Position numbers and translations under genes: made by a program. Below are positions 26,831 to 29,570 of a stretch of 64,000 nucleotides of DNA, piece after piece. Source of the DNA: Rhizobium sp. 16-488-2b (GTDB taxonomy: Bacteria > Pseudomonadota > Alphaproteobacteria > Rhizobiales > Rhizobiaceae); assembly GCF_017741815.1 (NCBI RefSeq), contig NZ_JAGHMF010000036.1, positions 124,001 through 188,000 on the forward strand, given 5' to 3'. Each line of letters begins with the position of its first letter. Positions within the stretch are counted from its first letter, which is position 1. The notes beneath the pieces were generated by a model, which did no database searches, was not told the DNA's origin, and saw only the letters and a list, made by a program, of their open reading frames with translations.

Positions 26831-27618
26831 GCCTACCCGCGATCGCAGTCAAAAGTCTCGTCAAGACATTCGGCGACACCACCGTTCTTCACGGCATCGA
26901 CCTCGAGATCCCGCAGGGACAGGTGTCTTGCCTGATCGGCCCGTCGGGCTCCGGCAAGAGCACGCTGTTGCGCTGCATGGCCTTTCTCGAGGAGGCAACA
27001 TCGGGAACGATCGCCATCAACGGCGAAACGCTCGGATTCACGGAAAATGTGCGTGGCGTGCGGGAGCGCGTTCCCGCCGCCGCGAACCGCGCGATCCGCG
27101 CGCAGATCGGCATGGTATTCCAGCAGTTCAACCTGTGGCCCCATATGACCGCACTCGGCAATGTCAGCGAGGCGCTGAAGCTGGTGCAGAAGATGAACAG
27201 GAAGGAAGCCGAGGAACTGGCGATGGCGCAACTCGTCAAGGTCGGCCTCGAAAGCCGGGCCGGGCACTATCCATCACAGCTGTCCGGCGGACAACAGCAG
27301 CGCGTAGCGATCGCCCGGGCGTTGGCGCTGAAGCCGAAGATCATGCTCTTCGACGAGCCGACCTCGTCGCTCGATCCCGAACTGACCGGCGAAGTGTTGA
27401 ACGTCATGCGCGATCTGGCCGCCGAGGGGATGACCATGGTGGTCGTCTCCCACGAGATCGGCTTTGCGGCCACCGTCGGCCAGCAGATCACCTTCCTCGA
27501 CCATGGCAAGGTGCAGTTTTCCGGTCCGCCGCAAGAAGTGTTCAAGAAACCGCGCAATCCACGTCTCGAGCAGTTCCTCGATACGTATCTCGACCGCGGC
27601 GCATCGATGCTGATGTAG
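26827..27618 (+). CDS. Amino-acid ABC transporter ATP-binding protein
   Basis: This 263-residue ATPase of the HisP/GlnQ class shows Walker A GPSGSGKSTLLRCM, Q-loop IGMVFQQFNLWPHMT, signature LSGGQQQRVAIARALAL, Walker B IMLFDEPTSSLDPE and the switch His in VVVSHEIGFA. The ATG at 26827 overlaps the permease stop as ATGA. An insertion NVRGVRERVPAAANRA of about 15 residues before the Q-loop is longer than in HisP-type standards. It powers the importer encoded by this operon. Confidence 0.93.
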   Translation: MSLPAIAVKSLVKTFGDTTVLHGIDLEIPQGQVSCLIGPSGSGKSTLLRCMAFLEEATSGTIAINGETLGFTENVRGVRERVPAAANRAIRAQIGMVFQQFNLWPHMTALGNVSEALKLVQKMNRKEAEELAMAQLVKVGLESRAGHYPSQLSGGQQQRVAIARALALKPKIMLFDEPTSSLDPELTGEVLNVMRDLAAEGMTMVVVSHEIGFAATVGQQITFLDHGKVQFSGPPQEVFKKPRNPRLEQFLDTYLDRGASMLM

Positions 27619-27842
27619 GGCTGTTCCTGTCGGCTACGTGCTTCTTTCACGTGCCGGCAAACGCTGCCGTTGAGGGCCGAAATGGGCGTTCGCCACCTTC
27701 AGTAGCACGGTACCGTCGTTGGAATGACTTCTTTGTGAAATGAGCCAAGCCGAGGCAATTCGTTAACACCCCATTAACGATCTCGGCGCTAGCTGATGCG
27801 CACTAACAATACGTATGCGCGCTATCGAGCAAGCTGGATCCG
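27619..27842. other. Intergenic region before the PBP gene
   Basis: The 224 bases between the ABC operon and the penicillin-binding protein gene contain no credible frame. The only clear signal is the CtrA-type box at 27763-27778, followed by AT-richer sequence toward the start codon. Confidence 0.5.
27763..27778. promoter_or_regulatory. CtrA-type box TTAA-N7-TTAAC
   Basis: TTAA-CACCCCA-TTAAC matches the full CtrA consensus of alphaproteobacteria and is also a short inverted repeat (CGTTAA/TTAACG). It lies 65 bases upstream of the start of a cell-wall transpeptidase gene. That position fits direct cell-cycle control by CtrA. Occupancy is inferred. Confidence 0.6.
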
Positions 27843-29570
27843 ATGTCCATTCTCCAAACACTAGCATCCAGAAGCGGGCGTCTCGTCAGCCTGGAATTCG
27901 GCTCTCGCGACAGCAGCAAGCGCTTGGTCAAACCACGCCGCAAGTCGCCCACGCCAAGATCGCGTCTGGCGATATTAGGCACCGTGCTTGTGCTTGCCTA
28001 CGGCGTCATCGGCGGCAAGCTCATCTATTATGGTTTGCACGGCGACCCCTCCACCTCCGCCATCCTGCCCAAGCCTTCGTCGGTCGCATCGCGCCCCGAT
28101 ATCGTCGATCGCAACGGCGAGTTGCTCGCGACCGACATCCGCACAGTGTCGATGTTCGCCGAGCCGATCAAGATCGTCGATGTCGATGACGCGGTCGAGA
28201 AGCTCGCCACCGTATTTCCCGATCTCGACAAGCGTTCGACCTACCAGAAGCTTTCCAACCGTCGTTCACACTTCGCCTGGCTGAAGCGCCAGCTGAGCCC
28301 GAAGCAGCAGAGCGAAGTACTGAAGCTCGGGATTCCTGCCATCGGCTTCCGCCCCGAAGTAAAGCGCTTCTACCCCGGCGGCCGCACTGCCGCGCATATC
28401 CTCGGATATGTCGACATCGACAATCACGGTGTAAGCGGCATGGAGAAATATCTCGACGAGCAAGGCCTCTCCGCGCTTGCCTCGACCGGCCTGACCGTCG
28501 CCGGCAGCCTGGAGCCCGTGAAGCTGTCCGTGGACCTTCGCGCCCAGAACGTCGTGCACGACGTGGTCGTCGACGCTCTCAGTCGATACGACAGCAAGGC
28601 CGCCGGCGCGGTCATTCTCGACATTCACACCGGCGAAGTGCTTGCCATGGCGTCGGCGCCGGATTTCGACCCGAATGACCCTAACGCAGGCGGTAGCGAT
28701 GGCTGGCTGAACCGGATGTCCAACGGCACCTTCGAGATGGGATCGACCTTCAAGACCTTCTCCATGGCGATGGCGCTGGACACTGGCATGGTCAAGCTGA
28801 CCGACACCTTCGATGCCACACAACCGATCCATATGGGCGGCTTCACCATTCACGACGATGCCTATGTGCCGCGCCGCTGGCTAACGGTGCCGGAGATTTT
28901 CCGCTATTCCTCGAATATCGGCACTGCCCGCATGGTCGATATCATCGGCATGGATAAGCAGCGCGAGTATCTCCAGCGCTTCGGTCTTCTCACCAGAATG
29001 CATACCGAGTTGCCGGAAGTGAAGACGCCGAGCCAGCCGAGGGTCTGGAAGAAGATTAACTCCATCACCGTGTCCTTCGGTCACGGCGTCGCCACGACCC
29101 CGCTTCAAACAGCGGTCGCCGGCGCGGCCTTGGTCGACGGCGGAACACTGATCGAGCCCACTTTCCTGCCGCGAACGGCCGAGCAGGCCAATATGGATGC
29201 CGAGGTCGTGGTCAAGCCAAGCACCAGCGATACGATCCGTGCGCTGTTCAAGCTCAACGGCGAGGAAGGCTCCGGACGCAGCGCCGACGTGCCTGGCTTC
29301 CATGTCGGCGGAAAGACGGGAACGGCGAACAAGGTGATCAACGGTCGATATTCACACGTTCTGAGCTTCAACGCCTATCTGGCGGCATTCCCAATCCAGG
29401 CGCCGAAATACGTCGTGCTTTCGTTCTGCGACGAGCCGAAGAAAGGCGACCGCGGCATGACCTTCGCAACCAACAATGCAGCGCCGATGGTGGCCGATAT
29501 CGTCAAGCGGGTCGCGCCAATGCTCGGCGTTCAGCCCGATTTCGGACAGAACCTGTTGGTCGGCTACTGA
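27843..29570 (+). CDS. Penicillin-binding protein, FtsI/PBP3 type
   Basis: This 575-residue class B transpeptidase has a short cytoplasmic tail and a membrane anchor at about residues 43-65 (LAILGTVLVLAYGVIGGKLI). The dimerisation domain begins RPDIVDRNGELLATDIRT, with the FtsI-like RFYPGGRTAAHILGYVD. The active site comprises Ser301-x-x-Lys304 (STFK), Ser356-Ser-Asn358 (SSN) and Lys491-Thr-Gly (KTG). It crosslinks septal peptidoglycan. The gene is not in a mra/dcw cluster, so it is probably a second FtsI paralogue, like the PBP3a/PBP3b pair of Agrobacterium. A CtrA-type box precedes it. Confidence 0.92.
   Translation: MSILQTLASRSGRLVSLEFGSRDSSKRLVKPRRKSPTPRSRLAILGTVLVLAYGVIGGKLIYYGLHGDPSTSAILPKPSSVASRPDIVDRNGELLATDIRTVSMFAEPIKIVDVDDAVEKLATVFPDLDKRSTYQKLSNRRSHFAWLKRQLSPKQQSEVLKLGIPAIGFRPEVKRFYPGGRTAAHILGYVDIDNHGVSGMEKYLDEQGLSALASTGLTVAGSLEPVKLSVDLRAQNVVHDVVVDALSRYDSKAAGAVILDIHTGEVLAMASAPDFDPNDPNAGGSDGWLNRMSNGTFEMGSTFKTFSMAMALDTGMVKLTDTFDATQPIHMGGFTIHDDAYVPRRWLTVPEIFRYSSNIGTARMVDIIGMDKQREYLQRFGLLTRMHTELPEVKTPSQPRVWKKINSITVSFGHGVATTPLQTAVAGAALVDGGTLIEPTFLPRTAEQANMDAEVVVKPSTSDTIRALFKLNGEEGSGRSADVPGFHVGGKTGTANKVINGRYSHVLSFNAYLAAFPIQAPKYVVLSFCDEPKKGDRGMTFATNNAAPMVADIVKRVAPMLGVQPDFGQNLLVGY

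What the first reader, a model, noticed from the sequence alone, without database searches (positions are those of the whole stretch)
27763..29570. CtrA-type box in front of a second FtsI/PBP3-type transpeptidase
TTAA-N7-TTAAC is a full CtrA consensus, 65 bases upstream of an FtsI-like gene that is outside any division cluster. Agrobacterium has two PBP3-type proteins. A CtrA box would tie this copy to the cell cycle and may set when septal or polar wall synthesis is used in this polar-growing group.
Basis: partly seen in the sequence, partly recalled or inferred. Interest (0 to 1): 0.55.

Follow-up and report, generated by a model that had tools for sequence, protein, structure and literature searches.

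The report
CtrA-boxed spare septal transpeptidase in Rhizobium

Summary
TTAACACCCCATTAAC (27763-27778) is the only TTAA-N7-TTAA in the 64 kb and ends 64 nt before a 575-aa class B PBP (FtsI type) outside the dcw cluster. The genome has three FtsI paralogues: this one on a repC-bearing contig, the dcw copy (67%) and another orphan (60%). The window copy has its own Rhizobium clade and is not the orthologue of the Agrobacterium-type PBP3b, so that parallel fails as stated. The box is conserved beyond chance: 17 of 18 promoter-distinct orthologues have it with at most one mismatch within 200 nt (shuffles: mean 1.2, maximum 4; other ORFs: 1 of 93), while neighbours differ. The same kind of box precedes minC, a known CtrA target in S. 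meliloti. Unexpectedly, PBP3b-type orphans of putative Agrobacterium and other genera also carry such boxes, often in tandem, but this genome's own PBP3b-like copy does not. Best reading: a privately CtrA-activated spare septal transpeptidase working with the one SEDS protein found, FtsW. Binding, timing and septal role are inferred. Side finding: the catalytic domain has been exchanged between orthologue lineages.

The parts
27763..27778 (+). CtrA-type box TTAA-N7-TTAAC (near-palindromic, reads as a box on both strands)
   Evidence: present with <=1 mismatch in 17 of 18 promoter-distinct orthologues
27789..27794 (+). possible -10 element CTAGCT, 26 nt after the first base of the box, which would put the box over the -35 region (inferred)
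   Evidence: weakly conserved TA at this offset (T 10 of 15, A 12 of 15) in the aligned promoters; a plain sigma-70 scan finds no promoter here; no start-site data
27843..29570 (+). class B penicillin-binding protein of FtsI/PBP3 type, 575 aa, third FtsI paralogue of the genome (called PBP3c here, a name of my own)
27843..28082 (+). N-terminal tail, presumed membrane segment and linker (aa 1-80): the part that differs most from the genome's own dcw FtsI (22-35% identity)
   Evidence: membrane segment read by eye, not predicted
28083..28415 (+). PBP_dimer domain match (aa 81-191)
28605..29501 (+). transpeptidase domain (aa 255-553); exchanged between orthologue lineages
28743..28754 (+). active-site motif SxxK (STFK, Ser301)
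28908..28916 (+). active-site motif SxN (SSN)
29313..29321 (+). active-site motif KTG

Best explanation
The window holds a self-contained, one-gene unit: a spare septal transpeptidase (FtsI/PBP3 type) with its own CtrA-activated promoter, carried on a repABC replicon. Shown here: the box, its conservation across differing gene neighbourhoods, intact catalytic motifs, purifying selection, a separate dcw ftsI, a CtrA gene, and one SEDS gene found (ftsW). Inferred: phosphorylated CtrA binds the 16-bp box over the -35 region and activates transcription in predivisional cells, adding enzyme to the FtsW-driven septal synthase just before division, while (as in S. meliloti) it holds down minC, which stands behind the same kind of box. 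The N-terminal tail and membrane segment have diverged strongly from the dcw copy, so its recruitment or its grip on FtsW probably differs.
For: Box unique in 64 kb. Conservation: 17 of 18 promoter-distinct orthologues with <=1 mismatch within 200 nt against a shuffle mean of 1.2 (maximum 4), 6 of 18 perfect against 0.06 (maximum 2); among 93 upstream regions of other ORFs from 17 fetched loci, 1 with <=1 mismatch and 0 perfect. For <=1 mismatch, N7 (17 of 18) beats every spacing N3-N12 (next 8 of 18). Half-site columns carry 1.1-2.2 bits; 10 of 12 columns 5' of the box are under 0.3. Neighbourhoods differ between clades while the box stays. Geometry would fit activation: Caulobacter full motifs that activate lie near -35 and peak in predivisional cells (PMC4287350, passages). 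The motif is informative in this genome: a perfect box begins 56 nt before the minC start, and minCD is directly controlled by CtrA in S. meliloti (PMC4433202, passages). CtrA present, 99% over 127 aa. One SEDS gene. Catalytic motifs in 25 of 25 orthologues tested and pN/pS 0.03-0.22 over 9 pairs.
Against: No binding, start-site or expression data. One orthologue (Neorhizobium JUb45, L072) has no box within 600 nt, and three relatives (L040-L042) carry the one-mismatch box at -166 to -170, plus a perfect TTAA-N7-TTAA at -242 to -246, instead of at -75 to -96. Perfect pairs at spacing N6 occur in 4 of 18 promoters against 6 at N7, so part of the signal is TTAA richness. The mraZ (dcw) promoter also shows a one-mismatch box conserved to S. 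[quoted passage not shown] No sigma-70-like promoter is seen at the box. The orphan copy L003 of this genome has no box. Only 17 of 37 genomes of the genus searched hold this orthologue, so it is dispensable.
Confidence: 0.6

Rival explanations
1. The box is real regulatory DNA but its effect is not CtrA activation: CtrA represses from it, or another protein that binds AT-rich TTAA repeats (for example MucR, or another OmpR-type regulator; both candidates recalled) is the main reader.
For: CtrA represses minCD in S. meliloti by direct control, and the minC box of this genome has the same form. No transcription start is mapped, so the position relative to it is unknown. In the Agrobacterium-type PBP3b promoters even the spacer is nearly fixed (TGTATA), which CtrA alone would not ask for. 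In the window clade two spacer columns (1.2 bits) and several columns 3' of the box (0.8-1.35 bits) are held too.
Against: In the window clade the two half-sites are the strongest columns and most spacer columns vary; 8 of 18 promoters carry the second published CtrA form TTAACCAT (both forms named in PMC11527210, passages).
Confidence: 0.18
2. The gene is a conditional spare or beta-lactam-tolerant transpeptidase, spread and remodelled by recombination on megaplasmids, and the cell-cycle timing is incidental.
For: Carried on large plasmids or chromids in six named strains; present in 17 of 37 genomes of the genus; its transpeptidase domain has been exchanged, with a change next to the active-site serine in one type (STFK to SVFK). 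Deleting Agrobacterium pbp3b alone had no effect on viability or cell length in the laboratory (PMC8546619, passages).
Against: A conserved private CtrA-type box over differing neighbourhoods is not expected for a constitutive resistance gene. The window copy itself has the STFK type, like the dcw enzyme. No susceptibility data either way. The two readings are compatible.
Confidence: 0.17
3. The box is only shared ancestry of a promoter, or a chance match without function.
For: 41 distinct perfect sites exist in the genome (my count), and 19 strand-matches are seen for the reversed control. Orthologous promoters are related by descent, so the shuffles overstate the surprise.
Against:: the 5' flank has diverged while the half-sites are held; shuffles and other ORFs do not reach the count.
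Confidence: 0.05

Closest known systems
Agrobacterium tumefaciens PBP3b (orphan, monocistronic FtsI paralogue)
   Same: An FtsI paralogue outside the dcw cluster in a polar grower that lacks PBP2 and RodA (PMC8546619, passages). CtrA-type boxes upstream in the putative Agrobacterium genus: 27 of 27 PBP3b-type loci looked at (one per genome) with <=1 mismatch within 200 nt. PBP3a and PBP3b together are needed for division.
   Different: Not orthologous: the window type branches among Rhizobium dcw ftsI, PBP3b-type copies in another clade; different N-terminus; different box form (tandem, nearly fixed spacer, about -130 to -155). The genus was recognised by its telomere resolvase in 2 genomes, not by a label, and PBP3b of strain C58 itself was not in hand.
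dcw-cluster FtsI (PBP3a)
   Same: Domain order, catalytic motifs, 67% identity.
   Different: The dcw copy follows ORFs read as mraZ, rsmH and ftsL; no perfect box in the 10-kb stretch L127 from its 5' end upward; N-terminal 80 residues 22-35% identical.
CtrA-controlled division genes (ftsQ, ftsK, mipZ in Caulobacter; minCD in S. meliloti)
   Same: Division-related genes with CtrA motifs upstream.
   Different: Those encode scaffold, segregation or placement proteins (roles recalled); this is a transpeptidase, in a duplicated, replicon-borne copy.
Mosaic penA (PBP2) of Neisseria (recalled)
   Same: Catalytic domain exchanged by recombination while the rest of the gene stays.
   Different: No resistance phenotype is known; here the exchange most simply lies in the sister lineage L037-L039/L067/L070, not in the window copy.

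Membership tests
CtrA regulon | TTAA-N7-TTAA box upstream of the start codon | tested here: met
CtrA regulon | box conserved beyond chance in orthologues | tested here: met
   17 of 18 promoter-distinct orthologues, 32 of 33 loci, <=1 mismatch
CtrA regulon | CtrA encoded in the genome | tested here: met
CtrA regulon | box at the -35 region of a mapped transcription start | tested here: inconclusive
   weak -10-like TA at box+27/28; no sigma-70 match; start site unmapped
CtrA regulon | CtrA binds in vivo or in vitro | not testable with these tools
   -
CtrA regulon | expression depends on CtrA and cycles | not testable with these tools
   -
FtsI/PBP3 (septal class B PBP) | PBP_dimer plus transpeptidase domain, SxxK/SxN/KTG | tested here: met
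   best solved relatives are PBP2 (penA type) and FtsI chains
FtsI/PBP3 (septal class B PBP) | groups with dcw-cluster FtsI sequences | tested here: met
   (no MrdA/PBP2 of the elongasome was in the tree); NCBIfam: penA-type PBP2, SpoVD and FtsI models score above MrdA, but no curated cut-off is reached
FtsI/PBP3 (septal class B PBP) | acts with a SEDS partner (FtsW) at the septum | tested here: inconclusive
   one SEDS gene found in the genome, on the dcw contig; interaction not testable
Agrobacterium PBP3b orthologue group | same clade as the PBP3b-type orphan copies | tested here: not met
   the genome's other orphan (L003) is the one in that clade

The most novel reading that the evidence does not exclude
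Rhizobiaceae have at least twice, in separate orphan FtsI lineages, placed a spare septal transpeptidase under direct CtrA control, so that CtrA sets the dose of FtsW's partner before division; in the window lineage the unit rides on a replicon whose own repABC operon stands behind the same kind of box, coupling the replicon to the division programme.
Probability: 0.3. Interest if true: 0.68.

Novelty: new variant of a known kind. Interest (0 to 1): 0.5.

Why it matters
In S. meliloti minC and minD are reported as the only characterised division genes directly under CtrA, and the authors point to unknown genes of the regulon in division control (PMC4433202, passages). In A. tumefaciens CtrA binding sites had not been identified by 2024, only predicted (PMC11527210, passages; PMC10469942, passages). 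A CtrA-timed transpeptidase would be a direct wire from the cell-cycle regulator to septal wall chemistry in polar growers, would give a reason why duplicated PBP3 genes persist, and can be tested with a deletion and a reporter in a tractable Rhizobium such as R. tropici CIAT 899.

Tried and rejected
Rejected: that the window gene is the Agrobacterium PBP3b orthologue. Rejected: that the window copy itself received a foreign transpeptidase domain; first suspected from the identity drop against L067 (and so written in my note), but the domain trees place both halves of the window copy next to or inside the group of L036/L065/L075, so the exchange most simply lies in the sister lineage. Rejected as support: an absence of CtrA control of dcw; its mraZ promoter shows a one-mismatch box. 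Led nowhere: sigma-70 and terminator scan, GANTC sites (within 200 nt in 2 of 5 promoters looked at), the genome-contig search with one protein, which reached 11 close relatives and 3 far ones.

Faulty step replaced: the first upstream scan read the loci whose match is on the minus strand in the wrong orientation; one search replaces it.

Rows dropped before counts: for the window-type promoter test 30 loci were reduced to 18 with upstream similarity under 0.85; L072 was kept as a miss; L178-L180 came later and are only in the count of 33, where the start of L180 was set to within a few bases. In the column profile only 15 of the 18 were used (sites with <=2 mismatches between -110 and -55), and L040 entered at a poor site, since its better box lies further upstream. 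For the PBP3b-type test 41 loci were reduced to 18; L175-L177 (64% or less to the query; L176 and L177 have the dcw-type N-terminus) were left out, and none of the three has a box. L148-L174 were assigned to the PBP3b type by 72-100% identity to L121 and L178-L180 to the window type by 70-75% identity, not by a tree. One locus per genome was taken; further FtsI copies of those genomes were not scanned for boxes, save L118 and L120. The control ORFs are mechanical calls, not curated genes.

Not in print, as far as searched: searches gave no title or abstract linking CtrA to an orphan FtsI in Rhizobiaceae, and of the papers listed I read passages only of some. PMC10469942 (agrobacterial start sites, CtrA predictions) has no 'ftsI' or 'penicillin-binding' in its main text. 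Subscription papers that could hold it were not seen (S. meliloti cell-cycle transcriptome, asked for and not held; CtrA studies in A. tumefaciens and Brucella, known here from reference lists).

Full report
OBSERVATION. The 16-bp sequence TTAACACCCCATTAAC is at 27763-27778 and is the only TTAA-N7-TTAA in the window. It ends 64 nt before the ATG at 27843 of a 575-aa ORF with PBP_dimer and Transpeptidase domains. Its best solved relatives are chains named penicillin-binding protein 2 and FtsI/PBP3. The gene upstream is the ATPase of an amino-acid-type ABC transporter, same strand, ending at 27618, and the gene downstream is a YghX-family hydrolase on the other strand, so the box has one likely customer. 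In the whole genome the pattern TTAA-N7-TTAAC gives 56 strand-matches against 19 for the reversed control.

THREE FTSI COPIES, NOT TWO. The genome (6.5 Mb, 56 contigs) holds three full FtsI-like genes: the window copy on contig C23, one at 67% on C51, one at 60% on C1. The C51 copy follows ORFs that I read as ftsL, rsmH and mraZ, matching the annotated mraZ-rsmH-hypothetical-PBP order in R. leguminosarum and S. meliloti records, and the one SEDS gene found in the genome is on the same contig. C23 also carries repC, so the window lies on a repABC replicon. Genes of the window type sit on plasmids or chromids of 1.07-2.40 Mb in R. tropici CIAT 899, R. lusitanum, Rhizobium sp. AB2/73, 11515TR and WYJ-E13 and Sinorhizobium sp. 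B11. In G016, however, it shares a 4.0-Mb contig with three other FtsI copies.

PHYLOGENY. In a tree of 95 FtsI-like proteins (quick method) the window type is one clade (SH-aLRT 100) with a long stem (0.67), nested among Rhizobium dcw ftsI sequences (SH-aLRT 96; 81 for its join with L108); because of the long stem the exact point of attachment is unsure. The other orphan of this genome (L003) belongs to a second, deeper-branching clade of 14 rows, with copies from the genus that carries a telomere resolvase (2 of 14 genomes tested, both of genus g42; putatively Agrobacterium, a recalled association) and a pAt plasmid copy of A. tumefaciens. The window type occurs in 17 of 37 genomes of the genus searched.

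BOX CONSERVATION. Of 33 window-type loci, 32 carry TTAA-N7-TTAA with at most one mismatch within 200 nt and 17 are perfect; the one without is Neorhizobium sp. JUb45. Reduced to 18 promoter-distinct loci: 17 with at most one mismatch (shuffles 1.2 on average, maximum 4) and 6 perfect (shuffles 0.06, maximum 2); with a C required after the second half, 15 of 18 (shuffles 0.21, maximum 2). Of 93 upstream regions of other ORFs from 17 fetched loci, 1 has a one-mismatch box and 0 a perfect one; that one is the mraZ region. For at most one mismatch no spacing from N3 to N12 comes near N7 (17 of 18; next N5 with 8), but perfect pairs also occur at N6 in 4 of 18 against 6 at N7, so the promoters are TTAA-rich in general. 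Aligned on the box (15 of 18 promoters), the half-sites carry 1.1-2.2 bits per column, the spacer mostly less (two columns reach 1.2), 10 of 12 columns 5' of the box are under 0.3, and several columns 3' of it (0.8-1.35) are held as well. A frequent variant is TTAG-N7-TTAACCAT; TTAACCAT occurs in 8 of 18. In 14 of 18 the box lies at -75 to -96; in three relatives the one-mismatch box lies at -166 to -170, with a perfect TTAA-N7-TTAA at -242 to -246. R. lusitanum (L180) and L047/L073 carry a tandem double box.

THE BOX TRAVELS WITH THE GENE. Among 14 neighbourhoods compared (3.5-6 kb on each side where available, mechanical ORFs, blastp at 1e-20), close relatives share neighbours (window with L067, L065 with L075, L135 with L137); beyond these only matches of 24-39% identity between transporter-like ORFs appear. 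Gene and promoter move, or are kept, as a unit.

IS THE MOTIF READ BY CTRA HERE? I looked at 22 of the 41 distinct perfect sites: 18 are intergenic by mechanical ORF calls. Four downstream proteins were scanned with Pfam: MinC, CpaB/RcpC, a protoglobin-MCP and a Peptidase_C93 protein. In S. meliloti minCD, mcpZ and other mcp genes and pilA1 are direct CtrA targets (PMC4433202, passages). In Caulobacter full motifs near -35 go with activation in predivisional cells (PMC4287350, passages). The window box fits that geometry only if the weak CTAGCT at 27789-27794 is the -10; the plain promoter scan does not find it.

A SECOND ORPHAN LINEAGE WITH BOXES. Among PBP3b-type loci, 15 of 18 promoter-distinct ones have a box with at most one mismatch within 200 nt and 11 a perfect one (shuffle means 1.5, maximum 6, and 0.05, maximum 2). 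In the putative Agrobacterium genus 27 of 27 PBP3b-type loci (one per genome) have one, 26 of them perfect, and 25 have a second box sharing the middle TTAA (TTAA-N7-TTAA-N7-TTAA, <=1 mismatch each). In most of these the first spacer is TGTATA after one free base, which warns that something besides CtrA may be held there. The PBP3b-like copies of this genome's group (L003, L109, L111-L113) and the pAt plasmid copy L143 have none within 400 nt. 27 of 39 genomes of that genus have a copy at 72% identity or more; one more has it in two pieces and one only a remnant. PMC8546619 calls PBP3 duplication restricted to a few plant-associated species (passages); these counts make it look commoner.

PROTEIN. 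STFK, SSN and KTG are intact, and the three motif classes are present in 25 of 25 window-type proteins tested. pN/pS is 0.03-0.22 over nine pairs (0.04-0.11 over four dcw pairs), so the gene is maintained. Against the genome's own dcw FtsI the first 80 residues are 22-35% identical, the rest 55-88% in blocks of 40: divergence is concentrated where FtsI is expected to be recruited and to touch FtsW (that role is recalled from E. coli work).

DOMAIN EXCHANGE. Against the syntenic L067 the window gene is about 90% identical in DNA up to +600, falls to 65-78% from +600 to +1650 and returns to 93-100% behind the stop. Domain trees conflict: N-terminal part of the window copy with L037-L039/L067/L070 (100/98), with L036/L065/L075 as the next group (98/93); transpeptidase part with L036/L065/L075 (98/92), far from L037-L039/L067/L070. 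The simplest reading is that the L037-L039/L067/L070 lineage took a different catalytic domain (SVFK type), while the window copy kept the old one (STFK type).

MECHANISM AND LIMITS. Most likely: CtrA-P activates this copy before division, adding transpeptidase to FtsW-driven septal synthesis while repressing minC. Shown: sequence, conservation, paralogy, intact enzyme motifs. Inferred: binding, sign, timing, location. In A. tumefaciens the orphan PBP3b alone is dispensable, but loss of both PBP3a and PBP3b stops division with mid-cell swelling and lysis (PMC8546619, passages); I expect a similar, backup-like phenotype here, by analogy only.

Noticed in passing
G000 contigs C23 (L181), C18 (L182), C6 (L183); the window's replicon is C23: A perfect TTAA-N7-TTAA begins 70-120 nt before the ORF I read as repA in 3 of the 6 repC-bearing contigs of this genome, including the window's own replicon; the stretches taken from the other three have none. 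One review passage links CtrA to repABC only through CcrM (PMC6090056).
   Followed up: partly
L037-L039, L067, L070 against window 28440-29550: Catalytic domain of the orphan FtsI exchanged between orthologue lineages, with types such as STFK/VSFGHG and SVFK/AAFGHG, as in mosaic PBPs.
   Followed up: partly
PBP3b-type loci L115-L117, L119, L121, L148-L172, about -130 to -155: Tandem TTAA-N7-TTAA-N7-TTAA (<=1 mismatch) with a nearly invariant TGTATA in the first spacer upstream of PBP3b-type genes; the spacer conservation is unexplained.
   Followed up: partly
L127, L144, L145 (mraZ promoters): nTAACCCTTTGTTAAACTTAAC, or close to it, a one-mismatch CtrA-like box, stands before mraZ in this genome, R. 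leguminosarum and S. meliloti.
   Followed up: no
L012 and L035 (own genome): Perfect boxes before a Peptidase_C93 (transglutaminase-like, BTLCP) gene (L035) and before a second protein that looks similar by eye (L012).
   Followed up: no
G220:C1:1026485-1028241 and G245:C2:1129366-1129512: A PBP3b-type gene in two pieces and, in another genome, a short remnant, in the putative Agrobacterium genus: orphan copies are lost.
   Followed up: no
L072 upstream (-2334 to -1785, minus strand): In Neorhizobium JUb45, the one orthologue without a box, an ORF that reads by eye like an FtsI transpeptidase part lies nearby on the other strand.
   Followed up: no
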